Of a DNA stretch of 64,000 nucleotides, positions 1-58,771 are shown piece after piece. Made by a program: the position numbers and the translations under genes. The DNA lies in assembly GCA_025359565.1 (NCBI GenBank), contig JANYFY010000025.1:124001-188000 (forward strand), in the 5' to 3' direction. Numbering within the stretch: the stretch's first letter is position 1; every line of letters starts with the position of its first letter. The notes beneath the pieces are model-generated. The model did no database searches. It was not told the DNA's origin and worked only from the letters and a program-made list of their open reading frames with translations. Origin of the DNA: Gammaproteobacteria bacterium (GTDB lineage: Bacteria > Pseudomonadota > Gammaproteobacteria > Steroidobacterales > Steroidobacteraceae).

Positions 1-1345
1 CATGACCGTGCGGTCCTCTCTCGCGCATGCGCAGCAGCACGGTTAAGGCAACACCGGCTAATCCTAGGCCCGAAAAAATCAACAGACCTAGTCGGTAACC
101 TTGCAAATTGCCGAGTCCGGCGTGCTGATGATCGTTGGCGCTGCCGATCGCTAAGTTGAGCACAAAAAACCCCACTTGCTCGACCAAGGTCATCAGCGCG
201 TAGGCGGTACCAAGCCGAGATTGGTCAACGAGATACGCGACGCAGGGCCACATGACCGCCGGAATGACGGAAAACGCGAGCCCCATCATGCACAAGGGTA
301 TGTACAGCGTGATATTCGTGTAGCCCATCAGCACATACGCCGGCATCAGAATCAGCGCAGCGGTCATCATCAAGGTCGCGCGCTGGCCGATTCGGTCCGA
401 CAATAGTCCGAGCAGCGGGGTTGCGATCATGGCGGAGAGCGGTAAAAGACTCGCGAACCCACCCGCCTGCTGGTGCGCGAGCATGCGCATGGCTTCAGTA
501 GCGCCAAGCCCGCCGTGATCCTCGAGAATACGGTTGGTGAAAAAATCGATTGCGAATGTGCGAAAAGGGAAGATCGCCGAATAAAATGTCAGGCAAATGC
601 CGACGACATACCAATACGAGGGGTTAAATTTGAGCGACTGACGAAGGTTGATGTTGCGTTTTGCACTAGAGGCGATCGGCAATGCGCGACTCGCGCCTGC
701 AGCGTGTCTCTCGAGTGCCCAATAGACTCCTGAGCACAAAATCGCAATGGTGCCGGCGCCTACCGCCAACAATAGCGGGCCTTGCCAACTGGGCTCGGTG
801 CTCAGCCCATGAGGATAGAACACTTTGTTTGCCCATCCCGGGGAATTATCGGCGGCTACCGACGCCAGTCGCGCGATCGTAATCTTGATACCAAAGGCAA
901 AAGCGAGCTCCTTGCCTTTGAACCATTTCGCAATTACCGTGGTGGCGGCGACTACCAGCGACTCCCCGCCCAACCCAAGCAAAGCTCGGCCTGCAATCAT
1001 CGTGTTCGGATGTCCGCTAGCCGCGGTGAGTGCCGCTCCTAAGCAACAGATCACCGCAAACAACGGAATCGCTCGCTGCGTACCGATTCGGTCGATGACC
1101 ATACCGCCGAGCAGCAGCGTGAGAATCGCGCTCGCGGCGTAGGCGGAATTCAACCAACCGAATGTGGTCGCAGAAAAACCTAACTCCTGGATGAAAATGC
1201 GTTCGAGCGGATTGATGCTGTCGTAAATATAGTAAGTGCCACAACCCATCGTGAGGCTGACGAACAGGAGCACGGTCCATCGATACAGAACGGAGGGTTG
1301 TCCTGGCAATTCGGCGACGGCGTTGACGCTGGGGGTGATGCTCAA
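1..1345 (-). CDS. MFS transporter, 3' end outside window
   Basis: Inner-membrane major facilitator superfamily permease, about 448 residues visible. It reads as alternating hydrophobic segments with the short basic loop typical of MFS between TM2 and TM3 (GGMVIDRIGTQR) and a second copy of that pattern later (LLSDRIGQR). The reading frame is still open at base 1, but the last residues (LLRMRERGPHGH) are polar and look close to the C-terminus. The start is a TTG at 1345-1343 that overlaps the TGA of agaS (TTGA), which implies translational coupling. An ATG-only search would miss it. Coupling to agaS suggests uptake of the amino sugar or sugar acid handled by this locus. Substrate cannot be read from sequence. 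Confidence 0.85.
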   Translation of the reverse strand, partial: MSITPSVNAVAELPGQPSVLYRWTVLLFVSLTMGCGTYYIYDSINPLERIFIQELGFSATTFGWLNSAYAASAILTLLLGGMVIDRIGTQRAIPLFAVICCLGAALTAASGHPNTMIAGRALLGLGGESLVVAATTVIAKWFKGKELAFAFGIKITIARLASVAADNSPGWANKVFYPHGLSTEPSWQGPLLLAVGAGTIAILCSGVYWALERHAAGASRALPIASSAKRNINLRQSLKFNPSYWYVVGICLTFYSAIFPFRTFAIDFFTNRILEDHGGLGATEAMRMLAHQQAGGFASLLPLSAMIATPLLGLLSDRIGQRATLMMTAALILMPAYVLMGYTNITLYIPLCMMGLAFSVIPAVMWPCVAYLVDQSRLGTAYALMTLVEQVGFFVLNLAIGSANDHQHAGLGNLQGYRLGLLIFSGLGLAGVALTVLLRMRERGPHGH

Positions 1346-2639: not shown

Positions 2640-2651
2640 TTTCATATACTC
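2640..2651 (+). promoter_or_regulatory. TTTCATATACTC motif copy 2 (candidate AgaR-type operator)
   Basis: This 12-mer TTTCATATACTC recurs exactly, in inverted orientation, at 3639-3650 ahead of the GH4 gene. An exact 12-bp match on both sides of the repressor gene is hard to explain by chance and suggests that one regulator controls both transcription units. Confidence 0.45.
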
Positions 2652-2718: not shown

Positions 2719-2732
2719 ATTAGATATCTAAT
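2719..2732. promoter_or_regulatory. Perfect 14-bp palindrome over the agaR start
   Basis: ATTAGATATCTAAT is a perfect palindrome lying between the AAGGA Shine-Dalgarno-like sequence (2714-2718) and the ATG at 2731, and it includes the first two bases of that ATG. It could be an autoregulatory operator or an mRNA hairpin controlling repressor translation. The SD-to-ATG distance is otherwise long, about 12 nt. Confidence 0.45.
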
Positions 2733-3564
2733 GAATGTCACAAAACAGAGCGTTGCGCGCCGCGCGATGGACACGGCGGGCGGCGGCGAAAGCACCGGAT
2801 TGCTGGTCGGTGAACGCCGCCATCGTATTTTGGACCTTCTCACTAAGAACGGGCGGGTCACTGTCGACGAACTGGCCAGTAACTTCGCCATCTCAACGGC
2901 TACTATTCGCCACGATCTCGCGGCTCTGGCAGCTACGGGCGCCCTGGAGCGGACCCACGGTGGTGCTCTCCTTAGCCGCGACGGCCAAGATTATCCGATT
3001 GCCCTGAAACGCACGCTGCATCACGCCGAGAAGGTGCGCATTGCCAGGGAGGCGGTCGGTCTCATCCGCGACGGCGAGACCATCCTTTTGGATTCCGGCA
3101 CCACCACGTCTGAGATTGCGAAGCAGCTACGCCAAATGGAATTTCGGTCGCTAAACGTTATTACCATCGGACTGAACATTGCCGTAATACTCGCCGATGC
3201 GCCCTGGGTACGACTTATTATGCCGGGCGGTGTTATGCGTCCCGAATCGAATGCTTTTTCCGGATGTATGGCCGAAGCTGCGATTGTGGGATTGCAAGCG
3301 GACCGTTTATTCCTCGGCGCCGATGGGTTGGATCCGGACTGTGGCGTCATGACTCCGCACCTCTTGGAAGCCCAGCTCAACGCCAAAATGATCGCAATTT
3401 CCCGGCAGGTGGTAGCTGTTGCCGATTCGTCCAAGCTCCTGCGCAGAAATGTGTCGCTGATCGCACGTGTGGAACAATTGCACATGTTGATCACCGACCG
3501 CTCGGCCGAGCCTGCCGTTGTGGCAGAGCTGCGCAGCCGCGGAGTTGAAGTTCGCTTGGCATGA
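2731..3564 (+). CDS. agaR: DeoR-family transcriptional repressor (AgaR-like)
   Basis: 277-aa cytoplasmic regulator. An unusual polar N-terminal tail of about 27 residues precedes the DeoR helix-turn-helix (RRHRILDLLTKNGRVTVDELA, then TIRHDLAALAATGALERTHGGA, residues about 29-75). The C-terminal DeoRC sugar-phosphate sensing domain follows, with DSGTTTSEIA, TIGLNIA, PGGVMRPESNAFSG and FLGADGLDPDCGVMTP. The last of these is the conserved F-G-A-D-G-x-D signature. It lies between agaS-MFS and the GH4 operon, so it probably responds to a sugar phosphate and represses both. The gene symbol rests on similarity plus the agaS neighbour. A start at the ATG at 2767 is also possible. Confidence 0.85.
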   Translation: MNVTKQSVARRAMDTAGGGESTGLLVGERRHRILDLLTKNGRVTVDELASNFAISTATIRHDLAALAATGALERTHGGALLSRDGQDYPIALKRTLHHAEKVRIAREAVGLIRDGETILLDSGTTTSEIAKQLRQMEFRSLNVITIGLNIAVILADAPWVRLIMPGGVMRPESNAFSGCMAEAAIVGLQADRLFLGADGLDPDCGVMTPHLLEAQLNAKMIAISRQVVAVADSSKLLRRNVSLIARVEQLHMLITDRSAEPAVVAELRSRGVEVRLA

Positions 3565-3638
3565 TCGGCAAGGACCGCCCCCCGCGAAGGTCGCCCTTAC
3601 TTCTTGACTTTGCCGAATCCGGGATTAAACTGAAGTGA

Positions 3639-3650
3639 GAGTATATGAAA
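3639..3650 (-). promoter_or_regulatory. TTTCATATACTC motif copy 3 (candidate AgaR-type operator)
   Basis: On the plus strand it reads GAGTATATGAAA, the exact inverse of the 12-mer at 2640-2651. It lies 140 bp upstream of the GH4 start, where an operator for the catabolic operon would be expected. Confidence 0.45.
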
Positions 3651-3790: not shown

Positions 3791-5164
3791 GTGGCTGATC
3801 GATTGAAACTTGTGCTCATCGGTGCGGGTAGCACCGTGTTCACGCAACGATTGGTTGCCGATCTTATTCTCAGTGGTCAGTCGGACAGATGGGAATTGGC
3901 GCTGGTCGATATTGATCCCGTCACGCTAACGGCAGTGGACGCATTAGTGCGTAAAATGCTGTTATTTAAGCATGTCGATTTTCCAGTCACTTCTACCACC
4001 GATCGCCGCAAAGTGTTGCCCGGTGCTGACTTCGTCGTAACCACGATCGCGGTTGGTGGCCGCCGCGGTTGGGAGCTCGACATTCAGGTACCCCGCAAGC
4101 ATGGCATTTATCAGCCGGTGGGTGATTCGGTGATGCCGGGCGGAATCTCGCGGGCCATGCGGATGATTCCCCAGATGGTAGCGATTGCTGAAGATATCGG
4201 CCGCCTTTGCCCTTCAGCCTATTTTTTCAACTATTCGAACCCCATGACGGCCATTTGCCGGGCCATCCGCCTGAAGACCGGCGTGCCGGTGATTGGACTG
4301 TGTCATGGCGTTCATCACGTCGAGAACGTTTTAGCGCAATTTCTGGGTCGCGAAGCAGGCAGTATCTCAAGCTTCGGTGTGGGGTTAAATCATTTGACCT
4401 TTCTCACCGACATCCGCTGCAACGGCGAGGATGCCAAACCTTTGCTGCAGGCAAAGCTTAACGAGCAGCGGCCTTTATTGCAGCAAGAAATTCGCGACAA
4501 GAAGAGCTGGCCTAATGGCGTGACGGGTCGCGCGCCGCGCTATTCCGATGACCCGCTGTCATGGTCTATATTCGAGCGTTACGGCGTCTTTCCAGTGGCC
4601 ATGGACCGCCACGTAGCCGAATTTTATCCTGAACGCTTTCCGCAGGGGCGCTATTACGGGCATACCCTTGGTGTTGATGCCTTCTCTATCGATGGCCGCA
4701 TTTCGCTCGGCGATACCTGGTTCGATGAGATGCTGGCGGTTGCTAGGTCCACCGATCCGTTGCCGGCCTCCTACTTCGACAATGTGCCAGGCGAATCAGA
4801 GCAATTGGTGGATATTATTCATTCGTTGCTTCAAGACCGGCGCGAAGTATTCTCAACTAACATGCCGAACGGCGGTGCCGTGCCCGGGCTGCCGTCGGAT
4901 GCGGTACTGGAACTGCCGGCGTCGGCTACAGGATCAGGATTCTCGCCGCTGCAGTCTTCGGCATTACCGCCGGCCCTGGTTGCCAAGCTATGCTCGAAGA
5001 TCGCTGCGGTCGAAGTGACCGTACAAGCAGCCTTGCAAGGGAGCCTCGATTTGTTCGTCGAGGCGCTGCTTGCCGATGGTGCGGTGAGCGACCCGGATGC
5101 GGCCGTTGCGCTGGCGCGTGACTTGGTCGAAACCCACAAAGTGCACCTTCCACAGTTCGCGTGA
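3791..5164 (+). CDS. Glycoside hydrolase family 4 protein, probable alpha-glucuronidase type
   Basis: 457-aa NAD- and metal-dependent GH4 glycosidase, cytoplasmic. GH4 enzymes cleave by transient oxidation at C3. Visible landmarks are the Rossmann GAGS at 11-14, an NAD-binding LVDID near 38-42, FNYSNPM at about 146-152, the motif CHGV at 171-174 (metal-ligand Cys171), and GLNH with His201 as the second metal ligand. In this family the tetrapeptide after the Cys tracks substrate: CHGI/CHGx has been linked to alpha-glucuronidase, CHEV to alpha-glucosidase, CHSV to alpha-galactosidase, and CDMP/CNVP to phospho-glycosides. CHGV therefore favours a uronoside; this is inference. The start is GTG at 3791 with a weak SD. 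First gene of the catabolic operon. Confidence 0.9.
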   Translation: MADRLKLVLIGAGSTVFTQRLVADLILSGQSDRWELALVDIDPVTLTAVDALVRKMLLFKHVDFPVTSTTDRRKVLPGADFVVTTIAVGGRRGWELDIQVPRKHGIYQPVGDSVMPGGISRAMRMIPQMVAIAEDIGRLCPSAYFFNYSNPMTAICRAIRLKTGVPVIGLCHGVHHVENVLAQFLGREAGSISSFGVGLNHLTFLTDIRCNGEDAKPLLQAKLNEQRPLLQQEIRDKKSWPNGVTGRAPRYSDDPLSWSIFERYGVFPVAMDRHVAEFYPERFPQGRYYGHTLGVDAFSIDGRISLGDTWFDEMLAVARSTDPLPASYFDNVPGESEQLVDIIHSLLQDRREVFSTNMPNGGAVPGLPSDAVLELPASATGSGFSPLQSSALPPALVAKLCSKIAAVEVTVQAALQGSLDLFVEALLADGAVSDPDAAVALARDLVETHKVHLPQFA

Positions 5165-5170
5165 GCGCAC

Positions 5171-5899
5171 ATGAGTGTGCTCAAAGCCGATCATGATCGA
5201 GCTGTAGAACTTGCCGGGGCGGGTATGGTGCCGCGCCCCGTCGATATCGATCAAACGCAAACCGGCTTTAAGACGCTGCGCACCTTAAGAATCTATCGCT
5301 TCAGTCCGCCTCAAGTAATTGACGGGCATGCCGAAGAGGATGAAGTCTACATTGTGGTGCTGAGCGGATCGGTAAAACTCGTCGTGCGCAGTAAATTATG
5401 GGACACCAATACCACTTCATTCGCATTAACTGCGGCGAGCGATCACCGTCCTGCGACCTGCGCGGCCTATCTGCCCCCGCATGCCGAGTACGTGCTCACG
5501 CCCATGGCCGCCTCGGATATCGCCTACGCTCGCGCGAGACCGTCGACTAGCCGCCGGCCCGCTGTTTTAACCTCGACGCCCCAACTGGAGGAGAGTGGTG
5601 TGTGGGTCTTATTGGACGACTCGCAGCATGCGGAGCGACTGCGCATCCGGATGCTGCATGTTAGCGCCGGATCGCGGGCGGCAGTATTGACGCCGATACG
5701 TGAGGCCGACCCCACGGGCGAGGCGTTGATACACCTGCGATGCACTCCGGTGCGCGGCGCGGCCGAGCTTGAAACACCCGGCGCATCCGCAGAAATGCTT
5801 GAGTCATGGGACACGATCGCCGTTGCTCCGGGGGAACGCCCGACCTTACGCATCGCCGCCGAGGCATCAGCCACGGGCTTTGTCGTGGCGGCGCTATGA
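5171..5899 (+). CDS. KduI/IolB-like cupin (putative uronate/deoxyglucuronate isomerase)
   Basis: 242-aa protein with a cupin-like stretch at about 52-75 (VIDGHAEEDEVYIVVLSGSV), resembling the N-terminal half of the IolB/KduI isomerases that act on 5-deoxyglucuronate or 5-keto-4-deoxyuronate. The C-terminal half is weakly conserved. I do not see the HxH...E...H metal site clearly, and the protein is slightly shorter than IolB (about 270 aa). It starts 6 nt after the GH4 stop and overlaps the next gene by ATGA. Context (uronoside hydrolase upstream, sugar-acid enzymes downstream) fits an aldose-ketose isomerase of uronates. The family call is tentative; a non-enzymatic cupin is an alternative. 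Confidence 0.5.
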   Translation: MSVLKADHDRAVELAGAGMVPRPVDIDQTQTGFKTLRTLRIYRFSPPQVIDGHAEEDEVYIVVLSGSVKLVVRSKLWDTNTTSFALTAASDHRPATCAAYLPPHAEYVLTPMAASDIAYARARPSTSRRPAVLTSTPQLEESGVWVLLDDSQHAERLRIRMLHVSAGSRAAVLTPIREADPTGEALIHLRCTPVRGAAELETPGASAEMLESWDTIAVAPGERPTLRIAAEASATGFVVAAL

Positions 5900-6918
5900 G
5901 CGATCAAACCGCGATGGCTCCGATCCAGCCCTGCCGGATTGTTGTGATCTCGGATAGCTTTCAGACCTTGCCTGAGGCAGTCACAGTTCTTGATGAGTCG
6001 GGCCACCTCGTGACGTATGTTCCGTCCCTCACGGCTTGGGCCGACCTCGAGCCAGCCGATCGGCGTGTCCTTGCGGAGGCGCGCGCGGTCGTCATGGGTC
6101 GCGTACTGGGTATCGATGCCAGCGCATTGGCGATCGCACCGCGGCTGTGCGTCGTCGCGCTACACACTTCAGGCAGCGACAACGTGGACATTGAAGCGGC
6201 CACCCGAAAAGGCGTGCTGGTCACCAACGTCAAGGGGGTCAACGCCGAGCAATGTGCCGAGTTTGCAATGGGTTTGATGCTTTGCGTGGTGCGCAAGATT
6301 TTAATGGGTGATCACGCGATCCGCTTAGGTAAATGGGCCACTCGCACGCAATCGAGCATGGATCTGTTTGGCGCGACTATGGGCGTCATCGGCTTGGGGC
6401 AGATCGCGAAGGCGTTCATTCTGCGTGCGCACGCCTTCGGCATGCGAATTGTAGTTCACACTCGCACGCCCGATCATAAGTTCGCCAGCCAGTACAAAAT
6501 AGAATACGTAACGCTCGATGCGCTACTCGCGCGAGCTGACGTCGTGGGGGTTTTCGCTTCGCTTGATAAAGAGAGTCGGCGCATGATCGGCGCTCGCGAG
6601 TTCAGTCTGATGAAACGCTCCGCGTATTTTATTAATATCGCGCGCGGCGAACTGGTCGACCAGGCCGCGTTGGTTGATACGCTGCGCGCACGTCGCATCG
6701 CTGGCGCGGGCCTCGATGTGTTCGAAGACGAACCTCTGCTGCAAAGCGAGTTGTTCGAACTTGACAACGTCGTCCTAACGCCGCACCAGGCGGGCCTCAC
6801 ACAAGGCGGGAAAACCGGCGCGGCGGTGCGTGCGGCACGTAACGCGTTGCAGGCTGTGCACGGCACTGTGCCGCGCGATGCCGTCAATCCCACTGCTTGG
6901 GATACACGGCCGAGCTGA
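5896..6918 (+). CDS. D-isomer-specific 2-hydroxyacid dehydrogenase
   Basis: 340-aa NAD(P)-dependent oxidoreductase of the SerA/GhrB superfamily. The catalytic-domain start is divergent. The Rossmann motif GVIGLGQIAK sits near residue 157-166. The catalytic triad is visible as Arg in NIARGELVD, Glu in FEDEPL and His in LTPHQAG. It interconverts a 2-keto acid and a D-2-hydroxy acid; which one cannot be read. The ATG at 5896 overlaps the upstream TGA (ATGA); an upstream in-frame GTG exists but lies inside the previous gene. Its place between a uronate-type isomerase and a sugar-acid dehydratase suggests oxidation or reduction of a sugar-acid intermediate. Confidence 0.88.
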   Translation: MSDQTAMAPIQPCRIVVISDSFQTLPEAVTVLDESGHLVTYVPSLTAWADLEPADRRVLAEARAVVMGRVLGIDASALAIAPRLCVVALHTSGSDNVDIEAATRKGVLVTNVKGVNAEQCAEFAMGLMLCVVRKILMGDHAIRLGKWATRTQSSMDLFGATMGVIGLGQIAKAFILRAHAFGMRIVVHTRTPDHKFASQYKIEYVTLDALLARADVVGVFASLDKESRRMIGAREFSLMKRSAYFINIARGELVDQAALVDTLRARRIAGAGLDVFEDEPLLQSELFELDNVVLTPHQAGLTQGGKTGAAVRAARNALQAVHGTVPRDAVNPTAWDTRPS

Positions 6919-6974
6919 GTACCGCGACCGGCCTTAGGAACAACTACACCACGCAACGCATTAAAAGGGGTTTC

Positions 6975-7031
6975 ATGATGTCAATTGTCTTAGTTTTTCT
7001 TCGAAAATTCGCACTGCGAGAATTCTTGTGA
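6975..7031 (+). CDS. Possible 18-aa leader/coupling peptide
   Basis: Small frame MMSIVLVFLRKFALREFL preceded by a good AAAAGGGG ribosome site 4-7 nt from two adjacent ATGs. Its TGA (7029-7031) overlaps the GTG start (7028) of the FAH-family gene as GTGA. The downstream GTG has no SD of its own, so ribosomes finishing this frame could re-initiate there. No homologue recognised; it may be only a translation-coupling device. Confidence 0.35.
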   Translation: MMSIVLVFLRKFALREFL

Positions 7032-7879
7032 AGCTAGTGCGTTACGGCGATGTTGGGCGCGAACGACCCGGCCTGCTCGATGCAAATGGGCAGATCCGGG
7101 ATTTGTCCGGCCACGTTGCCGATCTACGCGGCGACGCTTTGCTACCCTCAGCGATCGAGCGCATTCGTGCTTTGAACCCATCAACTCTGCCGCTGGTGGC
7201 AGGCACATCGAGGTTGGGGCCGTGCGTGTCGGGAAGTGGCAAATTCGTATGCATTGGTCTAAATTACAGCGATCACGCCCTCGAGGCGAACATGAAAATT
7301 CCGCCCGAGCCGATTATATTCATGAAAGCCACTTCTGCCATCAATGGTCCGAATGATGATCTCGAAATTCCTCGCGGTGGCGAAAAGCTAGATTGGGAGG
7401 CGGAACTTGCGATTGTCATCGGCACGCCCGCAAAATATGTTAGCGAGGACCGAGCGCTCGATCACGTAGTCGGTTACTGCATCGTGAATGATGTGTCGGA
7501 GCGCGCTTTTCAGCTAGAGCATCAGGGTCAATGGACTAAAGGCAAGTCGCACGATACCTTCGGCCCGCTGGGGCCTTGGTTGGTTACGGCGGATGAGGTT
7601 CCGGATCCACAGCGACTGGCGATATGGCTCGACGTAAACGGTCGCCGGTTTCAACAGGGCTCGACCGCTACTATGGTGTACACGGTCCGATACATTGTGG
7701 CCTATTTGTCGCGATTCATGACCCTTCATTGTGGCGACATCATTGCTACGGGCACGCCGGCCGGTGTGGGCATGGGTCAAAAACCTCCTAGATATTTGCG
7801 GGCCGGTGATCGGGTTTCGCTGGGCATCGAGGGATTGGGTACCCAGCACCAAACGGTGATTGCCGAGCGGGTGGAATGA
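7028..7879 (+). CDS. Fumarylacetoacetate hydrolase family protein
   Basis: 283-aa cytoplasmic hydrolase of the FAH fold, which acts on 2,4-diketo or 2-oxo-enoic sugar-acid intermediates (for example L-2,4-diketo-3-deoxyfuconate or ureidoglycolate-type enzymes). A YkgB/FAH-like N-terminal domain leads to CIGLNYSDHALE (about 75-86), metal ligands in the WEAELAIVIG segment (about 120-129), GYCIVNDVSER, KGKSHDTFGPLGPW and the terminal GDIIATGTPAGVGMG and GDRVSLGIEGLG. Usual length for the family. GTG start at 7028, possibly coupled to the small upstream frame. Next to an IlvD/Edd dehydratase it most likely performs the last C-C cleavage of a non-phosphorylated deoxy-sugar acid pathway. Confidence 0.88.
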   Translation: MKLVRYGDVGRERPGLLDANGQIRDLSGHVADLRGDALLPSAIERIRALNPSTLPLVAGTSRLGPCVSGSGKFVCIGLNYSDHALEANMKIPPEPIIFMKATSAINGPNDDLEIPRGGEKLDWEAELAIVIGTPAKYVSEDRALDHVVGYCIVNDVSERAFQLEHQGQWTKGKSHDTFGPLGPWLVTADEVPDPQRLAIWLDVNGRRFQQGSTATMVYTVRYIVAYLSRFMTLHCGDIIATGTPAGVGMGQKPPRYLRAGDRVSLGIEGLGTQHQTVIAERVE

Positions 7880-9603
7880 GCGCCGCGAAAGAGCTGCGTA
7901 GTCGTTCTTGGTTTGCGCGCCAGGATAAGAATGGTTTTTACTATCGCTCTTGGCTCAAGAACCGTGGACTTCCGCAAGACCAGTTCGACGGCCGACCGGT
8001 GATCGGCATCTGCAATACTTGGTCCGAGCTCACGCCTTGCAACACGCATTTTAAGACGATTGCCGACCACGTGCGCTGGGGCGTGTTGGAGGCTGGCGGT
8101 TTTCCTCTAGAATTCCCTGTGATGTCGTTGGGCGAAACGATGTTGCGTCCCACGGCGATGCTGTACCGCAATCTAGTCTCGATGGAGGTCGAGGAATCGA
8201 TTCGCGCCAATCCGCTTGACGGCGTTGTCTTGTTGATGGGCTGTGACAAGACCACTCCCGCGTTGTTGATGGGCGCTGCGAGCGTCGACGTACCCGCAAT
8301 TGGTATTTCGGCGGGGCCCATGCTGCGCGGCTTGTACCAGGGAAAGTATATCGGCTCGGGTACCAACACTATTTCCATGAGCGAACAACTGCGCTCCGGC
8401 GCGATCACGCTGACGCAATACCACGATGCCGAAGCGGGCATGCACCGCTCGCACGGCACGTGTATGACCATGGGCACCGCATCGACTATGGCCTGTTTGG
8501 TCGAAGCGCTCGGTATGTCGCTACCGGGGAATGCGGCGATTCCGGCGGTCGACGCGCGCAGGAATTTGTTGGCGCGCGAATCTGGTCGTCGTATCGTCGA
8601 TTTAGTGAAGCAGGATGTCGTTATGTCGCAAATCGTGACCCGACTGTCGTTGGAAAACGCAGTGAGGGTCAATGCTGGTATCGGCGGATCGACGAACGCC
8701 GTTATTCATCTAATCGCTCTTGCCCGACGATTAGGGCTGTCATTGAGTTTGGAAGATTGGGATAGCCTGGGGCAGACGGTTCCGTGCTTGCTCAACATCA
8801 TGCCGTCTGGTCAGTACTTGATGGAGGATTTTTTCGAGGCCGGCGGCCTGCCCGCCGTCGTTCGAGAACTCGGCGACAACAATCTATTGCACAAGCATGC
8901 AATGACGGTCAACGGCCAATCAATTTGGGAAAACAACCGCGAGGCGCCCTGCTGGAACCGCGATGTCATCCACTCTTTCGCAGCACCTTTCAAGCGCGAT
9001 GGCGGTATCGTTGTGCTGAAAGGCAACCTAGCGCCAGACGGCGCAGTGCTTAAGCCCTCGGCGGCATCACCGGCTCTAATGCAACATACCGGGCGTGCGG
9101 TGGTGTTCGAGACGATCGAAGACCTGCGTGCGCGGATCAACGACGACGCCCTGGACATCGACGAGACGTGCATAATGGTGCTGAAGAATTGCGGACCGAA
9201 GGGATATCCCGGAATGGCTGAAGTGGGAAATCTGCCACTGCCGCCCAAACTGTTGAAGCGCGGAATCACCGATATGGTTCGTATTTCTGATGCCCGCATG
9301 AGTGGTACGGCCTACGGTACGGTGGTTTTGCATTGCGCGCCTGAAGCGGCGGTGGGTGGCCCGCTGGCATTTGTTCAAAACGGGGATCTGATCACGCTTG
9401 ATGTGCAGCAACGGAAACTCTCGCTTCTCGTGAGCTCAGCTGAACTCGAACGTCGTCGAGCCGCGTTCCTGCCTTGCGCCCCGGCCGCGACCCGTGGCTA
9501 TGTGAAACTCTACGTCGATCATGTGCTGCAGGCAAATGAGGGCGCCGATCTGGACTTTCTGGCCGGTGGCAGCGGATCAAGCGTGCCGCGTGACAATTTT
9601 TAG
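7876..9603 (+). CDS. IlvD/Edd-family sugar-acid dehydratase (arabinonate/xylonate type)
   Basis: 575-aa Fe-S dehydratase. It resembles the L-arabinonate/D-xylonate dehydratase branch more than IlvD of valine synthesis: it begins LRSRSWF and carries NTWSELTPCN. The three cluster cysteines are visible as Cys55 (PCN), Cys123 (GCDKT, with Lys125) and Cys197 (HGTCMTMGT); their spacing matches the sugar-acid dehydratases. The C-terminal domain holds KNCGPKGYPGMAEVGN and the substrate-binding SDARMSGTAYG. Product would be a 2-keto-3-deoxy sugar acid. ATGA overlap with the FAH gene upstream supports consecutive steps. Substrate unknown; uronate-derived aldonate or aldarate is inferred from context. 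Confidence 0.9.
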   Translation: MSAAKELRSRSWFARQDKNGFYYRSWLKNRGLPQDQFDGRPVIGICNTWSELTPCNTHFKTIADHVRWGVLEAGGFPLEFPVMSLGETMLRPTAMLYRNLVSMEVEESIRANPLDGVVLLMGCDKTTPALLMGAASVDVPAIGISAGPMLRGLYQGKYIGSGTNTISMSEQLRSGAITLTQYHDAEAGMHRSHGTCMTMGTASTMACLVEALGMSLPGNAAIPAVDARRNLLARESGRRIVDLVKQDVVMSQIVTRLSLENAVRVNAGIGGSTNAVIHLIALARRLGLSLSLEDWDSLGQTVPCLLNIMPSGQYLMEDFFEAGGLPAVVRELGDNNLLHKHAMTVNGQSIWENNREAPCWNRDVIHSFAAPFKRDGGIVVLKGNLAPDGAVLKPSAASPALMQHTGRAVVFETIEDLRARINDDALDIDETCIMVLKNCGPKGYPGMAEVGNLPLPPKLLKRGITDMVRISDARMSGTAYGTVVLHCAPEAAVGGPLAFVQNGDLITLDVQQRKLSLLVSSAELERRRAAFLPCAPAATRGYVKLYVDHVLQANEGADLDFLAGGSGSSVPRDNF

Positions 9604-9628
9604 CAATACCCGATGAGGAATTAAGCAA

Positions 9629-10033
9629 GTGAAAAAGCGACCTCTGATGATAAATCGCCGTAAGACCCTTCTCGCGATGATCGGAGCCTGGGGCGCAGGA
9701 CTTCTGAGCCCCGCTTTGGCAAGACTCCCCGACACGCCTGCCGATACTGTGGAGAAAGCGCTGCGTGAGGATTTGACCCGTCTTGGGGAGCGTGCTTATT
9801 CCGAAGAAGGCATCCCTGTTTTCTTGGCATGCGTGGATTTGGTTGCACCAAAGAATGGTCGCGCCATAGTGCCGACCTCGGCCCTGAGTCGAACCGTTGC
9901 CTCGGACCTGCGCAAGAACGGTGAGGCGTGGCTGCGCATTTACCCTAAGGCCTCCGATGGCGACGTGTCGAAATTAATTGAGTTGCTGGCGGAACGCGAC
10001 TTTGGCCGCAGTAGGACAGGAGATAAGTCGTGA
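9629..10033 (+). CDS. Small exported protein, possible Tat substrate, unknown function
   Basis: 134 aa. The N-terminus contains NRRKTLLA followed by a hydrophobic run and a PALA cleavage-like site, similar to a twin-arginine signal although the motif lacks the usual Phe. The mature part of about 100 residues is charged and has no domain I recognise. GTG at 9629 has GAGG about 13 nt upstream; an ATG at 9647 gives a shorter signal peptide. It lies 25 bp after the dehydratase and overlaps the following NodB-fold gene (GTGA), so the two proteins may be partners. Small Tat-exported proteins of this kind occur beside secreted dehydrogenases or hydrolases, but no such role can be shown here. Confidence 0.65.
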   Translation: MKKRPLMINRRKTLLAMIGAWGAGLLSPALARLPDTPADTVEKALREDLTRLGERAYSEEGIPVFLACVDLVAPKNGRAIVPTSALSRTVASDLRKNGEAWLRIYPKASDGDVSKLIELLAERDFGRSRTGDKS

Positions 10034-10797
10034 ATCGACCTAGCACTTTCGGCGAACGAGTGATAGAACTCTCAGAATCCTTTGCGACTCATCCGCTTAT
10101 CCGCGCTGTCAATTTTCACAGCACCTCGCGAGCCCAGGTAGAGCGCTATGACCGCCAGCTTGAGCATTACAGCCGTTCATTTTCCGCAGTCAACGAGGAT
10201 GAGTTGCAGGAGTATCTGGTTACCGGGAATTGGCGCAAAAGTAAACCCGGACTGATTGTGTCGGTGTTCGAGGGGTATCGCAACAGTTATGAAGTGCTGA
10301 CTCCCTTGATCGAAAAACACGGCTTCGTTGGTTGGTACTGGGTCATCACGGGATTTATCAATACCCCAATTCCCGATCAGCTGACGTACGCCGAACATCA
10401 CGATATCGATATGTTGACTCACGATTATCCCGATGGCCGCTACGCGCTCACATGGGATGAGCTGCGCCAGCTGGGCAAGAAGCATGTGATCGCTTGCCAC
10501 ACACGCTCGCACACCCTGCTGTCGGGATTAGATGTCGCGACTCGACGCGAAGAGGTAATCGGATCGCAAGAGGAATTTAAAAAGCATCTCGGCCATCCGG
10601 CGCGCTCTTTTGTTTCCCTGACGGGGCCCGCTTACGGCGAAGATGCCAACACCGACGATTTAATCCATGCGGCCGGATTTGAGTTCGTTTTTTCAAATTT
10701 TCGCATTCAAAAAATCGCGAGTCCCCCAAAAGCTGCGGTGTCTCAAACCGCAAGTATCACGTCCGCACTAACATCTAACGGAGACCCACTAAGATGA
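10030..10797 (+). CDS. NodB-fold polysaccharide deacetylase-like protein with altered catalytic site
   Basis: 255 aa, similar to the cytoplasmic PuuE/allantoinase-like branch of carbohydrate esterase family 4. Motif 2 is intact as HTRSH at 157-161, and FVSLTGPAYGED resembles motif 3. Motif 1 should read T-F-D-D-G-Y, with a catalytic Asp and a metal Asp, but here it reads S-V-F-E-G-Y at 78-83: catalytic Asp to Phe80, metal Asp to Glu81. No signal peptide. GTG start overlaps the previous stop, and the ATG of the amidase gene overlaps its own stop. The C-terminal 25 residues are low-complexity Ser/Thr/Ala and do not look like the family, possibly a truncation or frameshift end. It may be a non-hydrolytic homologue. 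Confidence 0.78.
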   Translation: MNRPSTFGERVIELSESFATHPLIRAVNFHSTSRAQVERYDRQLEHYSRSFSAVNEDELQEYLVTGNWRKSKPGLIVSVFEGYRNSYEVLTPLIEKHGFVGWYWVITGFINTPIPDQLTYAEHHDIDMLTHDYPDGRYALTWDELRQLGKKHVIACHTRSHTLLSGLDVATRREEVIGSQEEFKKHLGHPARSFVSLTGPAYGEDANTDDLIHAAGFEFVFSNFRIQKIASPPKAAVSQTASITSALTSNGDPLR

Positions 10798-11414
10798 TCG
10801 CAAAATTCGATGCTACGACCGCTTTGCTGCTTATCGACGTGCAAAAGGGTGTCGACGTACTTGAACACTGGGGCGGTCGAAACGGACGACGCAATAATCC
10901 AGAAGCGGAAACCAATCTGCGCTCACTGCTAGATGGATGGCGAGGTGCAAAGTTGCCGATTCTGTATACCCTGCATAATTCGCGCGAAGAACGTTCGCCT
11001 TTGAAGCTCACGCTTCCCACTGGAAAAATCAAAGAAGGATTGGAACCGCGCAGCGGCGAAACCGTCATCACTAAAGACGTAAACAGCGCATTCGTCGGCA
11101 CCAATCTCGAATTGATACTTCGGCGACAACGAATCGGTCGATTGGTGGTGGCCGGGTTCTTCACCAATATGTGCGTAGAAACGACGGTTCGAATGTCGGG
11201 GAATATGGGATTCGATACCTACCTCGCGGCTGATGCTTGCGCGACCAGCAATCGAGTAGGTTGGGACGGAGTCGATCGCGACCCGGAGCTGGTGCATGCC
11301 ATGTCGGTGGCCAACATGGATGGTGAGTATTGCACAGCAATCACCACCCAAACCGCTCTTAAGCTGTTATCAGCTAACGATGAGTCTCTAAATCGGCGCC
11401 AGGGGAACGAATGA
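10794..11414 (+). CDS. Isochorismatase-family cysteine hydrolase
   Basis: 206-aa amidase/nicotinamidase-like enzyme. The catalytic triad is complete: Asp15 (LLIDVQKG), Lys94 (VITKDVNSAF) and Cys127 (FFTNMCVETT), followed by the conserved Arg and the loop TYLAADAC. Such enzymes hydrolyse C-N bonds of ureido, carbamoyl or nicotinamide-type substrates. The ATGA overlap with the NodB-fold gene suggests an amide is processed in this pathway, but substrate cannot be read. Cytoplasmic; no signal. Confidence 0.88.
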   Translation: MIAKFDATTALLLIDVQKGVDVLEHWGGRNGRRNNPEAETNLRSLLDGWRGAKLPILYTLHNSREERSPLKLTLPTGKIKEGLEPRSGETVITKDVNSAFVGTNLELILRRQRIGRLVVAGFFTNMCVETTVRMSGNMGFDTYLAADACATSNRVGWDGVDRDPELVHAMSVANMDGEYCTAITTQTALKLLSANDESLNRRQGNE

Positions 11415-11430
11415 TGCAAATCCTTCGCGA

Positions 11431-12123
11431 TTGCGGCTGAAGCAATTGCCCCGAATACGCAGAACGAGATCGATACTAAGTCTTATCCTGTTGCTTACAG
11501 CGACTGAAATTGCCTACGGTGAGCCGATCCAACACATAGGTGGGCCGATCGAACCCATTGCCCTGGCGAAAGCGATGGAGCAGGTGGCCGGTGTGACGAG
11601 TTATCTTGAGACCGCCGTTTCTCCCGATGCTCAGTGGGTTGCGTGGTCGCAATCAACTTTGCCTGCGAATCAAGGCTACTACGTTTTCTTGCCCAATCCT
11701 CGAGGTAGCGCTGGGTTCGGTGAAAAATTTAAGAGAGCCAATGTCAAGGACATGGGCGGGGCAGGCTGTGCCGATCTATTATCGTATTATGGGGAGAACG
11801 GTATCGATGAATGGTTAATCCCGTACTTTGGCGCATCCGTCTACGATGATCCGGCCGTTTACGCGAAGAGTTCGCCCATTACTTTTATCAAACACGTGCA
11901 TACCCCGACCTTACTGATCGTGGGCGACAGCGATGTAGAAAGTCCACCGCCGCAATCGTACGAATATTGGCACGCTTTAAGGACGCTGGGCGTGAAGACC
12001 GAATTGGTTATTTATCCGCACGAAGGACATGAGTTCTCCGATCCTGCACATGTGCTCGATAGATCGCAACGCATCGTTAATGGGTTCGATGAAAATATGC
12101 CGCCGTCACCGAAATCACAATGA
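11431..12123 (+). CDS. Internally deleted S9-family prolyl-oligopeptidase-like protein, no catalytic Ser
   Basis: 230 aa with a signal peptide (cleavage near AYG at 28-30). Residues 31-75 resemble the start of an S9 dipeptidyl/acylaminoacyl peptidase (SPDAQWVAW). The chain then jumps at about 75-77 to the alpha/beta-hydrolase domain (GYYVFLPNPRGSAGFG). It jumps again at about 110 from VKDMGG to LLSYYGENGIDEW, skipping the segment that normally carries GWSYGG with the nucleophile Ser. Asp168 (GDSDVE) and His200 (HEGHEF) of the triad remain. A full S9 enzyme is about 650-700 aa. Both deletions keep frame, so this is either a decaying pseudogene or a non-enzymatic remnant. Start TTG at 11431 (or 11446); the stop overlaps the symporter ATG. 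Confidence 0.65.
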   Translation: MRLKQLPRIRRTRSILSLILLLTATEIAYGEPIQHIGGPIEPIALAKAMEQVAGVTSYLETAVSPDAQWVAWSQSTLPANQGYYVFLPNPRGSAGFGEKFKRANVKDMGGAGCADLLSYYGENGIDEWLIPYFGASVYDDPAVYAKSSPITFIKHVHTPTLLIVGDSDVESPPPQSYEYWHALRTLGVKTELVIYPHEGHEFSDPAHVLDRSQRIVNGFDENMPPSPKSQ

Positions 12124-13526
12124 CGACTGTCCGGCGCGGCCCAGCGGGTTTAACAACGAATCAGAGGTCTAGTTGGTCATCCCAGCTCGCAATCTACTTA
12201 GGCACCATCGGTGCGGCCGTGGGCCTTGGTAGTATTTGGCGCTTTCCGTACTTAGCGGGCACCTTAGGCGGCGGGAGTTTCATTGGCGTCTTCGTGCTCG
12301 CGTGCTTGATCATCGCCACGCCACTTCTCGTCGCGGAGTACTTGATCGGTCGCTACTCGGGTCTCGCCCCCATTGATGCCGCGGGCGACATGGCGATTAG
12401 CATCGGTAGCTCTCGGCGTTGGAATATCATCGGCCAGTTGGCGACTGTGGCGGCTTTCTTGATTAGCTCTTATTACACGATCGTGGCGGGCTGGGTGGTT
12501 GCTTACGCATGGAAATGCGGTACGGGCGCGATTGCAGGTTTGTCGCGACCGGAATTGCAGGGCGAATGGCGTCACTTCTTGGCAAACCCCTGGCAACTCA
12601 TGGGTTGGCAGGTGGGATTTATTTGCGCGGTAACCTTAATCTCGGCCAGAGGGCTTGGTCCTGGAATCGAACTCGCGAGTCGGATTCGAGCGCCAGTGCT
12701 GCTGGTGCTGTTACTCTTTTTGGATGCCTATTCGTTGTCAACCGGCGACGTGGCGCAGACCCTTCGCTTCGTCTTTGCACCCCACTGGCACAGCCTGTCC
12801 GCCGCAGTCGTCCTCGCAGCGATTGGGCAAGCCTTTTATGCAACAGGGGTCGGCATGGGAATGATGCTCGCGTATGGATCTTACATGCCACGCCACGCAC
12901 CCCTCGTGCGTCCGGCGCTGCTGGTCAGCGGGTCGATTTTGCTGGTCTCACTCCTGGCCACGATACTCGTGTTTCCGCTCGTGTTCCGCTTTCATATGGA
13001 TCCGGCGGGTGGACCGGCGTTAGTGTTCGATGTATTACCGACAGCCTTTGCGCTCATGCCGGGCGGTCGCTATATCGGCACCATTTTTTTTGTGTTGCTG
13101 ATTTTTGCCGCGCTCACCCCGTCACTCGCAGGATTAGAACCCGTGACCGCATGGCTGCAAGCCCGCGGGTTTCAGCGCTGGACAGCGGCGGTGGCGAGCG
13201 GATTTGCGATCTGGGTTGCCGGCATTGGATCGGTCCTATCATTTAACTGGATTGCGGGTTGGCACCCCCTTGAAGTTGTTCCGATCTTGGCAGGTAAGTC
13301 CCTCTTCGAAGTAGTTGACTTCGTTGCTGGCAATCTGCTTTTACCGGTGGGCGCGCTGATGACCTGCCTTTTCGTCGGCTGGCGCCTAGACCGTGCGACA
13401 TTCGCCATTGAACTTAGCGGAAGCCCCGCACTCGTAGTGGAGTTCTGCCGCATCCTGCTGCGCTATGTCTGTCCTGTTGCTATTGCAGCGGTCTTGTTGG
13501 CGGCGCTCGTGCAAGGCCATGGTTGA
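12120..13526 (+). CDS. Sodium:neurotransmitter symporter (NSS/SNF) family transporter
   Basis: 468-aa inner-membrane protein with about 12 hydrophobic segments. Family hallmark in TM1 is AAVGLGSIWRFPYLAG followed by GGGSF. LeuT-type members have Asn in GLGN, a Na1 ligand; here the position is Ser. TM3 carries ISSYYTIVAGW, including the substrate-gate Tyr, and TM6 carries AAIGQAFYATGVGMG. NSS proteins import amino acids or other amines with Na+. Last gene of the operon, ATGA-coupled to the S9-like gene, and followed by a hairpin at 13535. Together with the MFS gene it gives the locus two transporters. Confidence 0.9.
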   Translation: MTTVRRGPAGLTTNQRSSWSSQLAIYLGTIGAAVGLGSIWRFPYLAGTLGGGSFIGVFVLACLIIATPLLVAEYLIGRYSGLAPIDAAGDMAISIGSSRRWNIIGQLATVAAFLISSYYTIVAGWVVAYAWKCGTGAIAGLSRPELQGEWRHFLANPWQLMGWQVGFICAVTLISARGLGPGIELASRIRAPVLLVLLLFLDAYSLSTGDVAQTLRFVFAPHWHSLSAAVVLAAIGQAFYATGVGMGMMLAYGSYMPRHAPLVRPALLVSGSILLVSLLATILVFPLVFRFHMDPAGGPALVFDVLPTAFALMPGGRYIGTIFFVLLIFAALTPSLAGLEPVTAWLQARGFQRWTAAVASGFAIWVAGIGSVLSFNWIAGWHPLEVVPILAGKSLFEVVDFVAGNLLLPVGALMTCLFVGWRLDRATFAIELSGSPALVVEFCRILLRYVCPVAIAAVLLAALVQGHG

Positions 13527-58056: not shown

Positions 58057-58771
58057 CAAATGATGAGTCTGTGGAAGCGAGAAAGAGCGCACACCCCGCC
58101 ATCTCATCCGCCAGGCCCACGCGCCGTAGTGCGATGCGTAGCGCCAGGGCATCGAATGCCTGATTTATCGTAACGCCTTGCCTTTGTGCACCCACACGCA
58201 TCTCTTCTTCGCTCATGGGTGTGCGCACCCAGCCGGGACAAAGACAATTGGCGCGAATTGCATATTGGCCGTATTCATTCGCAAGCGTACGTGTGAAGGC
58301 AATGATGCCTGCCTTACTCGTCGCGTAGCTCGCCATGCCAGCCGATCCATTAAACGCGGCGACTGACGCTATGTTAACGATCGTGCCTCCGCCCGCTTGT
58401 CGCAAATAAGGGATAGCGGCGCGACAGACGCGCATAGTGCCCGTTAAATTAACATCTAAAGTGTGTTGCCAAACAGAGTCCTCAATGTCCGCGACATCAT
58501 CCTCGTGCGTGATGCCAGCCGCGTTCACAATAATGTTGAGCGTACCCAAGTTCGCTGCTAATTGAACGCTGGTGGTAACCGCGGCTTGATCGGTCACATC
58601 ACAAATATGGGTATGAGCGCCCGTTTCAGCCCCTAGTGATTTGAGTAAAGTAGCCTGCAAACCCACCGCGAGCACGGCCGCCCCTTCTGCGCGAAATCGT
58701 CGCACGATGGCAGCACCGATACCACTCTCAGCTCCGGTGACTAACGCCGTTTCACCTATCAGGCGCGTCAT
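57992..58771 (-). CDS. Short-chain dehydrogenase/reductase
   Basis: 259 aa classical SDR: TGAESGIGAAI cofactor loop, ICDVTDQAAV, NAAGI, NIASVAAFNG with catalytic Ser, SYATSKAG (Tyr-x3-Lys), CPGWVRTPM, and LVADGGART near the end. NAD is the likely cofactor. The ATG overlaps the DMGDH-like stop (ATGA). Second SDR of the operon; substrate probably a hydroxylated amine or carbon backbone of the same pathway. Confidence 0.9.
   Translation of the reverse strand: MTRLIGETALVTGAESGIGAAIVRRFRAEGAAVLAVGLQATLLKSLGAETGAHTHICDVTDQAAVTTSVQLAANLGTLNIIVNAAGITHEDDVADIEDSVWQHTLDVNLTGTMRVCRAAIPYLRQAGGGTIVNIASVAAFNGSAGMASYATSKAGIIAFTRTLANEYGQYAIRANCLCPGWVRTPMSEEEMRVGAQRQGVTINQAFDALALRIALRRVGLADEMAGCALFLASTDSSFVTGSVLVADGGARTPASARAI

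What the first reader, a model, noticed from the sequence alone, without database searches (positions are those of the whole stretch)
3791..13526. Composite uronoside/sugar-acid operon, possible undescribed pathway
GH4 with CHGV motif, IolB-like cupin, hydroxyacid dehydrogenase, FAH hydrolase and an arabinonate-type IlvD/Edd dehydratase are joined by overlapping codons with C-N hydrolase-type genes and an NSS symporter, and face agaS. I know no characterised pathway with this set. It reads as hydrolysis of a uronoside, oxidation, dehydration and C-C cleavage without kinase or KDPG aldolase, possibly with an amide or amine substituent removed by the second half.
Basis: inference. Interest (0 to 1): 0.8.

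Follow-up and report, generated by a model that had tools for sequence, protein, structure and literature searches.

The report
Gene island for galactosamine-linked sugar acids
A sporadic set of genes, shared by unrelated bacteria and apparently switched together with galactosamine-use genes, probably lets them eat a sugar made of galactosamine joined to a sugar acid by a route that has not been worked out in the laboratory.

Summary
The genes are real and well placed, but the unit differs from the one proposed. Homologues in Acidobacteriota, Alphaproteobacteria (Devosia, Rhodobacterales, a sphingomonad) and an Arthrobacter plasmid keep a core: GH4, IolB-like cupin, NADP-type 2-hydroxyacid dehydrogenase, IlvD-type dehydratase, a small unknown protein, a deacetylase-fold protein, and AgaR/AgaS/GatZ galactosamine genes. 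GH4 and cupin occur in the same 3 of 394 genomes of the Aliiruegeria family; GH4 and the deacetylase-fold protein in the same 3 of 136 of the Devosia family (46, 82). One operator-like sequence lies before agaS and before GH4 and nowhere else in the genome. FAH in the window is replaced by 4-hydroxy-2-oxovalerate aldolase plus acylating aldehyde dehydrogenase in alphaproteobacteria, pointing to a 2-keto-3-deoxy acid intermediate. The isochorismatase, a deleted S9 peptidase remnant and the NSS symporter are local additions. Best reading: uptake and cleavage of a (N-acetyl)galactosamine-sugar-acid glycoside, hexosamine to tagatose phosphates, acid half dehydrated and split to pyruvate. Substrate, order of steps and the cupin's role are inferred. 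No characterised equivalent was found in the papers searched.

The parts
2..1345 (-). MFS transporter, running to the window edge; overlaps agaS by 4 bases; nearest solved structure MFSD1 (8r8q)
   Evidence: homologues beside FAH in L019 and beside S9 in L009 and L043
1342..2655 (-). agaS-like SIS-domain gene (galactosamine-6-phosphate deaminase/isomerase family)
   Evidence: TIGR02815 454.5 bits, cut-off 529.2
2640..2651 (-). operator-like site GAGTATATGAAA before agaS
2731..3564 (+). AgaR-like DeoR-family regulator
   Evidence: NF040755 230 bits, cut-off 260
3604..3631 (+). promoter-like TTGACT-16-TAAACT; similar sequence before GH4 and before a TonB receptor in L005
   Evidence: the scan alone is at chance level (8 found, 7.0 expected)
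3639..3650 (+). second copy of the operator-like site, before GH4
3791..5164 (+). GH4, NAD-dependent glycosidase family, CHGV and DRHVAEF motifs
5171..5899 (+). IolB-like bicupin without the metal-binding histidines
5896..6918 (+). D-2-hydroxyacid dehydrogenase, R/E/H triad intact, NADP-type HTRT motif
7028..7879 (+). FAH-family hydrolase, nearest solved L-2,4-diketo-3-deoxyrhamnonate hydrolase 8gsr
7876..9603 (+). IlvD/Edd-family aldonate-type dehydratase
9629..10033 (+). P6, small protein of unknown family with signal-like N terminus (by eye), coupled to the next gene
   Evidence: (no Pfam)
10030..10797 (+). polysaccharide-deacetylase-fold protein with altered catalytic motif 1
10794..11414 (+). 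isochorismatase-fold hydrolase, lineage-specific addition
   Evidence: 2 of 16 stretches
11431..12123 (+). S9 peptidase remnant, not part of the core
12120..13526 (+). NSS-family Na+ symporter, not part of the core

Best explanation
The core (agaS, agaR, GH4 through the deacetylase-fold gene) is a sporadic, probably laterally spread catabolic island for a glycoside that joins (N-acetyl)galactosamine to a sugar acid, most likely a uronic acid. The glycoside enters through a CUT1-type ABC transporter (alphaproteobacteria, one acidobacterium, Arthrobacter) or through TonB receptor plus MFS (this lineage). GH4 splits it by the NAD-dependent redox-elimination chemistry of its family. The hexosamine half is deacetylated if needed (the deacetylase-fold protein with P6 is the candidate, since no NagA was found in this lineage), phosphorylated, and turned by AgaS into tagatose-6-phosphate and by tagatose-bisphosphate aldolase (GatZ) into triose phosphates. 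The acid half is brought to a 2,3-dihydroxy acid (cupin and NADPH-type 2-hydroxyacid dehydrogenase), dehydrated by the IlvD-type enzyme to a 2-keto-3-deoxy acid, and split to pyruvate plus a short acid: here by FAH hydrolysis, in alphaproteobacteria by 4-hydroxy-2-oxo-acid aldolase (MhpE) with an acylating aldehyde dehydrogenase (MhpF). Shown: gene content, conservation, co-occurrence, shared operator-like sites. Inferred: substrate, order of steps, every catalytic role.
For: Conserved set: in 16 stretches (window and 15 others, some cut by contig ends) six-frame profile searches find GH4 16, cupin 15, deacetylase-fold 14, P6 13, 2-hydroxyacid dehydrogenase 12, AgaR 10, AgaS family 9, ABC binding protein 8, IlvD 8, GatZ 7, SDR 6, FAH 5, MhpE and MhpF 5 each; FAH with MhpE in 0 of 16, SDR in 4 of 5 MhpE stretches and 0 of 5 FAH stretches (profiles were built largely from these same members). 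Further large sets: Arthrobacter plasmid, L036 and L037. Co-occurrence: cupin family in exactly the GH4-bearing 3 of 394 genomes; deacetylase-fold family (best E below 1e-90) in exactly the GH4-bearing 3 of 136; its only match in 72,556 plasmid records is the same Arthrobacter island. Co-regulation: GAGTATATGAAANC twice in 3.14 Mb, before agaS and before GH4, 0 reversed-control hits; block shared with two L005 promoters. GH4 DRH motif: 16 of 16 close members aligned, also in LplD. MhpE and MhpF score 557 and 456 bits against curated cut-offs of 286 and 282. NagA: no match over cut-off in 3 of 3 gamma genomes, over cut-off in 9 of 13 in all. AgaS as GalN-6-P deaminase/isomerase: PMC3668189, abstract seen.
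Against: No enzyme was assayed and no substrate is known. IlvD is not locus-specific: the window copy scores higher with 8ej0 (921 bits) than with the alphaproteobacterial island copies (805 bits or less; different programs), L017 carries a divergent one, and it was not seen in 8 of 16 stretches, although 12 of 13 genomes hold some IlvD-family match. The cupin is absent from L020 and from the whole Arthrobacter stretch. No 4-dehydrogenase is seen in the FAH version, although the known FAH of this type takes a 2,4-diketo acid. MhpE/MhpF normally make acetyl-CoA or propionyl-CoA (recalled), which does not follow from a hexuronate. The deacetylase-fold protein has lost the usual catalytic and metal aspartates. 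G1016 has binding protein, permease, P6, deacetylase-fold and TonB genes without GH4 in the 33 kb read. GatZ is not in the window; it is elsewhere in the genome. L006 has no FAH between dehydrogenase and IlvD and no operator-like site. L020 has GH4 with none of the other families tested.
Confidence: 0.45

Rival explanations
1. The acid is the aglycone, not a uronic acid at the -1 site: GH4 acts as an NAD-dependent alpha-galactosaminidase on GalN(Ac)-aldonate or a similar conjugate, and the freed aldonate goes to IlvD and FAH.
For: IlvD subfamily members are aldonate dehydratases (PRK06131 912 bits against 539; 8ej0 and L-arabinonate dehydratase hits), and no uronate dehydrogenase or lactonase was seen among the operon's families. 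The hexosamine gene agaS shares the operator.
Against: The DRH motif is shared with the alpha-galacturonidase LplD, which suggests a carboxylate in the -1 site.
Confidence: 0.22
2. Unrelated neighbours: a galactosamine operon next to an independent sugar-acid operon, plus a peptide/amino-acid module, with no shared substrate.
For: IlvD and FAH are common families; GatZ is elsewhere in this genome; the isochorismatase is lineage-specific.
Against: Same set in three phyla with different gene orders, GH4 found with the cupin in 3 of 3 genomes and with the deacetylase-fold protein in 3 of 3 (45/124, 46/82), one operator-like site pair unique in the genome.
Confidence: 0.15
3. A deoxy-sugar route of the L-rhamnose/L-fucose type: the acid half is a 6-deoxyaldonate and FAH makes lactate plus pyruvate.
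For: Nearest solved FAH is L-2,4-diketo-3-deoxyrhamnonate hydrolase (318 bits); NF053535 412 bits.
Against: NF053535 cut-off of 500 not reached; no sugar 1-dehydrogenase or lactonase among the operon's families; no role for GH4 or AgaS.
Confidence: 0.08

Closest known systems
E. coli aga/gam (N-acetylgalactosamine/galactosamine) pathway
   Same: AgaR-like regulator, AgaS, GatZ/KbaZ family, PfkB or 1-PFK kinase in relatives
   Different: No PTS gene among the families assigned, NagA/AgaA not found in the three gamma genomes, joined to a glycosidase and a sugar-acid route
Non-phosphorylative L-rhamnose (LRA) type pathway with 2,4-diketo-3-deoxy acid hydrolase
   Same: FAH hydrolase of the LRA6 kind and a dehydratase making a 2-keto-3-deoxy acid
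   Different: No sugar dehydrogenase, lactonase or 4-dehydrogenase in the window operon; IlvD instead of an enolase-type dehydratase (the LRA enzyme set is recalled)
GH4 alpha-galacturonidase LplD (3fef) and alpha-glucuronidases
   Same: Family, NAD site, Cys/His metal site, DRH motif
   Different: 135.5 bits only; CHG instead of CHE at the Cys motif; a separate clade of about 48-89% identity to the window protein
IolB (5-deoxyglucuronate isomerase)
   Same: Bicupin fold, Foldseek top hit 2qjv, TMq 0.74
   Different: 16% identity, metal-binding histidines not conserved
MhpE/MhpF (DmpG/DmpF) aldolase-dehydrogenase pair
   Same: Alphaproteobacterial versions carry members above the curated cut-offs in place of FAH
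   Different: Normally in aromatic and steroid meta-cleavage pathways (recalled)

Membership tests
GH4 glycosidase | Both GH4 Pfam domains above cut-off; N-terminal NAD motif; Cys and His metal ligands | tested here: met
   (G11, G13, S14, C171, H201 invariant in 20 rows)
GH4 uronidase (LplD type) | Activity on a uronoside; motif shared with LplD | tested here: inconclusive
   DRH shared; activity not testable; that CHG marks glucuronidases is recalled
aga galactosamine pathway | AgaS and AgaR families | tested here: inconclusive
   454.5 of 529.2 and 230 of 260 bits: clear relatives below the curated cut-offs
aga galactosamine pathway | NagA/AgaA deacetylase | tested here: not met
   none over cut-off in G000, G021, G030
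aga galactosamine pathway | Tagatose-bisphosphate aldolase GatZ/KbaZ | tested here: met
   elsewhere in own genome, C30:77597-78850, 617 bits; adjacent in L005
L-2,4-diketo-3-deoxyrhamnonate hydrolase (NF053535) | Score over curated cut-off of 500 | tested here: not met
   411.9 bits
L-arabinonate dehydratase (NF009559) | Score over curated cut-off of 882 | tested here: not met
   850.6 bits; PRK06131 subfamily is met, 912 of 539
IolB/KduI isomerase | Bicupin fold | tested here: met
IolB/KduI isomerase | HxH...E...H metal site (recalled) | tested here: not met
   no His among the invariant columns; E184 is
CE4 polysaccharide deacetylase | Fold family and paired His motif | tested here: met
   Pfam 31.9 of 23.1 bits, H157/H161 invariant, nearest solved PgaB/IcaB-type
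CE4 polysaccharide deacetylase | TFDDG motif with catalytic and metal Asp (roles recalled) | tested here: not met
   VFEGY, FYNGY, LFEGF and the like instead
C-N hydrolase (nitrilase) family | CN_hydrolase domain | tested here: not met
   no such hit for any of the ten proteins
D-2-hydroxyacid dehydrogenase | R, E, H catalytic residues | tested here: met
   15 of 15 aligned sequences

The most novel reading that the evidence does not exclude
GH4 here does not close its redox cycle but releases a 3-keto-uronate (NAD+ used as a substrate). Counted from the acid end this is a 4-keto acid, so IlvD dehydration gives a 2,4-diketo-3-deoxy acid with no further dehydrogenase. FAH then yields pyruvate and tartronate semialdehyde, the metal-free cupin turns that into hydroxypyruvate, and the NADPH-type 2-hydroxyacid dehydrogenase makes D-glycerate. 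This gives every acid-half gene of the FAH version a job and explains why that version shows no 4-dehydrogenase, while MhpE/MhpF stand beside an extra SDR in 4 of 5 stretches. It fits the MhpF product badly.
Probability: 0.13. Interest if true: 0.8.

Novelty: new variant of a known kind. Interest (0 to 1): 0.56.

Why it matters
It would add a galactosamine-uronide (or galactosamine-aldonate) route to known amino-sugar catabolism, give a function to locus-linked protein families (a metal-free IolB-like cupin, a deacetylase-fold family with a rebuilt active site, and P6), and offer a clean case where one intermediate is split either by an FAH hydrolase or by an MhpE/MhpF pair. Named strains appear among the record titles (Maritimibacter fusiformis, Aliiruegeria haliotis, Devosia algicola, Arthrobacter sp. 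ERGS1:01), so it is directly testable.

Tried and rejected
C-N hydrolase annotation: rejected. KduI-type metal isomerase for the cupin: rejected on missing ligands, fold kept. Anionic-substrate MFS: the D-galactonate-transporter hint (72 of 395 bits) was dropped after the nearest solved relative proved to be MFSD1. First gene-content counts used a home-made gene caller that missed genes (for example a cupin in L017 and P6 in L013, L018, L019, L021); they were replaced by six-frame profile counts. Cupin in the Arthrobacter island: not found. The first P6 profile test there was circular because that row was in the profile (also in 132); with the row held out it is weak (E 2.4e-4 at Z=1000). P6 fold: model too poor to search (mean pLDDT 64). 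P6 profile against solved structures: nothing credible. Plasmid searches with the cupin, the dehydrogenase (at 1e-60) and an alphaproteobacterial P6 gave no match. A first operator pattern, typed with an error of register, gave no hit; the shared 12-mer was read from the sequence, so the operator was found by inspection and its uniqueness tested afterwards. Papers: searches returned none; some returned papers of which I saw the listing and start of abstract only, and none described the set as far as those show; the library holds open-licence papers only. One paper, PMC3668189, was opened (outline and abstract).
Full report
Observation. The window lies at 124001-188000 of contig C8 in a 3.14-Mb genome of 98% completeness; two relatives found by GH4 carry the title Gammaproteobacteria bacterium. 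Corrections are given in the observation check: no C-N hydrolase, an intervening agaR, a later start for the dehydrogenase, and a remnant S9 peptidase in which residues 147-557 and 592-643 of the intact L005 homologue are missing, with its GWSYGG motif.

Conservation. GH4 was sought in public genomes: 18 loci, 15 at 51-89% identity and 3 at 26-28%. It is in 3 of 98 host relatives, the own genome included, 3 of 394 genomes of the family of the Aliiruegeria genome, 3 of 136 of the Devosia genome's family and 4 of 300 of an acidobacterial family. It is thus sporadic, which with 64-89% identity across two phyla suggests lateral transfer (inference; no tree was built). Gene content was counted in 16 stretches (window and 15 others, several cut by contig ends) by six-frame profile searches: GH4 16, cupin 15, deacetylase-fold 14 (two copies or more pieces in 8, all alphaproteobacterial), P6 13, 2-hydroxyacid dehydrogenase 12, AgaR 10, AgaS family 9, ABC binding protein 8, IlvD 8, GatZ 7, SDR 6, FAH 5, MhpE 5, MhpF 5, PfkB 3, MFS 3, isochorismatase 2. 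The profiles contain most of these members, so the counts describe the set and are not an independent test. Misses include real absences and cut contigs; the L012 dehydrogenase and AgaS lie just outside the first stretch (L038). L020 has GH4 only. L036, L037 and the Arthrobacter plasmid island (L035) were added later. In L037, an acidobacterial genome, IlvD, FAH, two deacetylase-fold genes, P6, ABC permeases and binding protein, the dehydrogenase, ABC ATPase, cupin, GH4 and AgaS form one run. The Arthrobacter island holds a class II aldolase, two PfkB-type kinases, a SIS protein, ABC genes, the dehydrogenase, a DeoR regulator, a P6 candidate, the deacetylase-fold protein, FAH, GH4 and IlvD, and no cupin; with its rows held out the profiles still find deacetylase-fold (E 1e-62), FAH (3e-75), GH4 (2e-162), IlvD (1e-260) and dehydrogenase (4e-34), while P6 is weak (2e-4).

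Co-occurrence. The cupin profile finds exactly G101, G102 and G203 among 394 genomes, the same three that hold GH4 (the second search scored at most 7 candidates per genome). The deacetylase-fold profile finds G100, G104 and G110 at best E below 1e-90 among 136 genomes, the same three that hold GH4; four further genomes match only at 1e-11 to 1e-17. Among 397 genomes of a sphingomonad family it finds, at that strength, G106, which has GH4 (L017), and G1016, which in the 33 kb read has binding protein, permease, P6, deacetylase-fold and TonB genes but no GH4; four others match at 1e-12 to 1e-17. In 72,556 plasmid records its single match is the Arthrobacter island.

Regulation. GAGTATATGAAA occurs before agaS and before GH4 (0 of 100 shuffles reach two matches with one mismatch allowed). 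GAGTATATGAAANC has two hits in the whole genome, these two, and none for the reversed control. The block around ATATGAAAnCTT is shared by these two promoters and by those of a TonB receptor and GH4 in L005, a genome of another genus of the same family. L006 lacks it, and I saw none by eye in the alphaproteobacterial intergenic regions. That AgaR binds it is inference.

Biochemistry. GH4: Cys171, His201 and NAD-site glycines are invariant in 20 rows; DRH-x2-EF is present in 16 of 16 close members aligned and in LplD. Dehydrogenase: catalytic Arg, Glu, His in 15 of 15; TRT, TRS or SRT after the second strand in 15 of 15, read as NADP-type by analogy; nearest solved relatives are glyoxylate reductases. 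FAH: 318 bits to L-2,4-diketo-3-deoxyrhamnonate hydrolase 8gsr; the L019 and L035 copies deviate at several conserved motifs. IlvD: 921 bits to 8ej0, 788 to an L-arabinonate dehydratase entry. Cupin: model with mean pLDDT 94.6, top Foldseek hit the IolB-like 2qjv, TMq 0.74, without conserved metal histidines. Deacetylase-fold: nearest solved relatives poly-N-acetylglucosamine N-deacetylases (E 3e-6), with the catalytic and metal aspartates replaced. In alphaproteobacteria the place of FAH is taken by MhpE and MhpF (557 and 456 bits against cut-offs 286 and 282 in L014), with an SDR in 4 of 5 stretches. NagA is not found over its cut-off in the three gamma genomes nor, narrowly, in G107. GatZ is elsewhere in the host genome, beside a SIS gene that looks AgaS-like and a BadF-type kinase.

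Reading. Because GH4 and cupin are tied to AgaR/AgaS in gene order and, in this lineage, by the shared operator, the substrate should contain galactosamine; because IlvD and FAH or MhpE/MhpF follow, it should also contain a sugar acid. The simplest molecule is a disaccharide acid. Whether the acid is a uronic acid on the non-reducing side or the aglycone is open; the LplD-like motif favours the former. The role of the cupin and the dehydrogenase before or after C-C cleavage is open, and the MhpF product is the weakest point of any uronate scheme. The novel case, a 3-keto-uronate route, is the one scheme I found that uses every acid-half gene of the FAH version without adding an enzyme; it is not excluded and not shown.

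Known or new. The paper searches (listings and abstract starts only) gave no description of this set; subscription papers are mostly not held. All enzyme families except P6 are known, so I rate it a new variant of a known kind (amino-sugar plus sugar-acid catabolism), not categorically new.

Noticed in passing
window 11431-12123: S9 peptidase remnant: two in-frame internal deletions against the intact L005 homologue, remainder highly alike; decay or an assembly collapse.
   Followed up: partly
L072 9585-13049 (G000 C30): Second hexosamine cluster in the own genome: GatZ, an AgaS-like SIS gene and a BadF-type kinase, near a TonB receptor, an EamA transporter and a melibiase-domain protein; no NagA over cut-off in the genome.
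   Followed up: partly
L021 6676-13313: In Devosia algicola GH4, MhpE, MhpF, SDR, AgaR and one deacetylase-fold gene each appear in two or three reading-frame pieces: decay of the island or a poor assembly.
   Followed up: no
L005 11704-13431: The IlvD copy has Gly where most others have Cys in the SHGTCMTMG motif.
   Followed up: no
L006 7305-11816: Between the island and an NSS gene lies what reads like a sarcosine-oxidase operon (from the translations only).
   Followed up: no
window 41889-44369 and 58768-61332: Two DAO plus glycine-cleavage-T proteins (dimethylglycine/sarcosine dehydrogenase type), which may explain the nearby amino-acid symporter.
   Followed up: no
L042 3895-12435: In Devosia algicola a distant GH4 (24%) lies near another IlvD gene with an SDR and what look like ABC transporter genes: possibly a second GH4-IlvD pairing.
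   Followed up: no
L035 5430-5744: Arthrobacter island encodes a 104-residue protein starting Met-Pro, tautomerase-like to the eye, no Pfam hit; could stand in for the missing cupin.
   Followed up: no
L067 11128-15224 (G1016): A sphingomonad genome keeps binding protein, permease, P6 and deacetylase-fold genes beside a TonB receptor without GH4 in 33 kb: transport and deacetylase-fold part can occur alone.
   Followed up: partly
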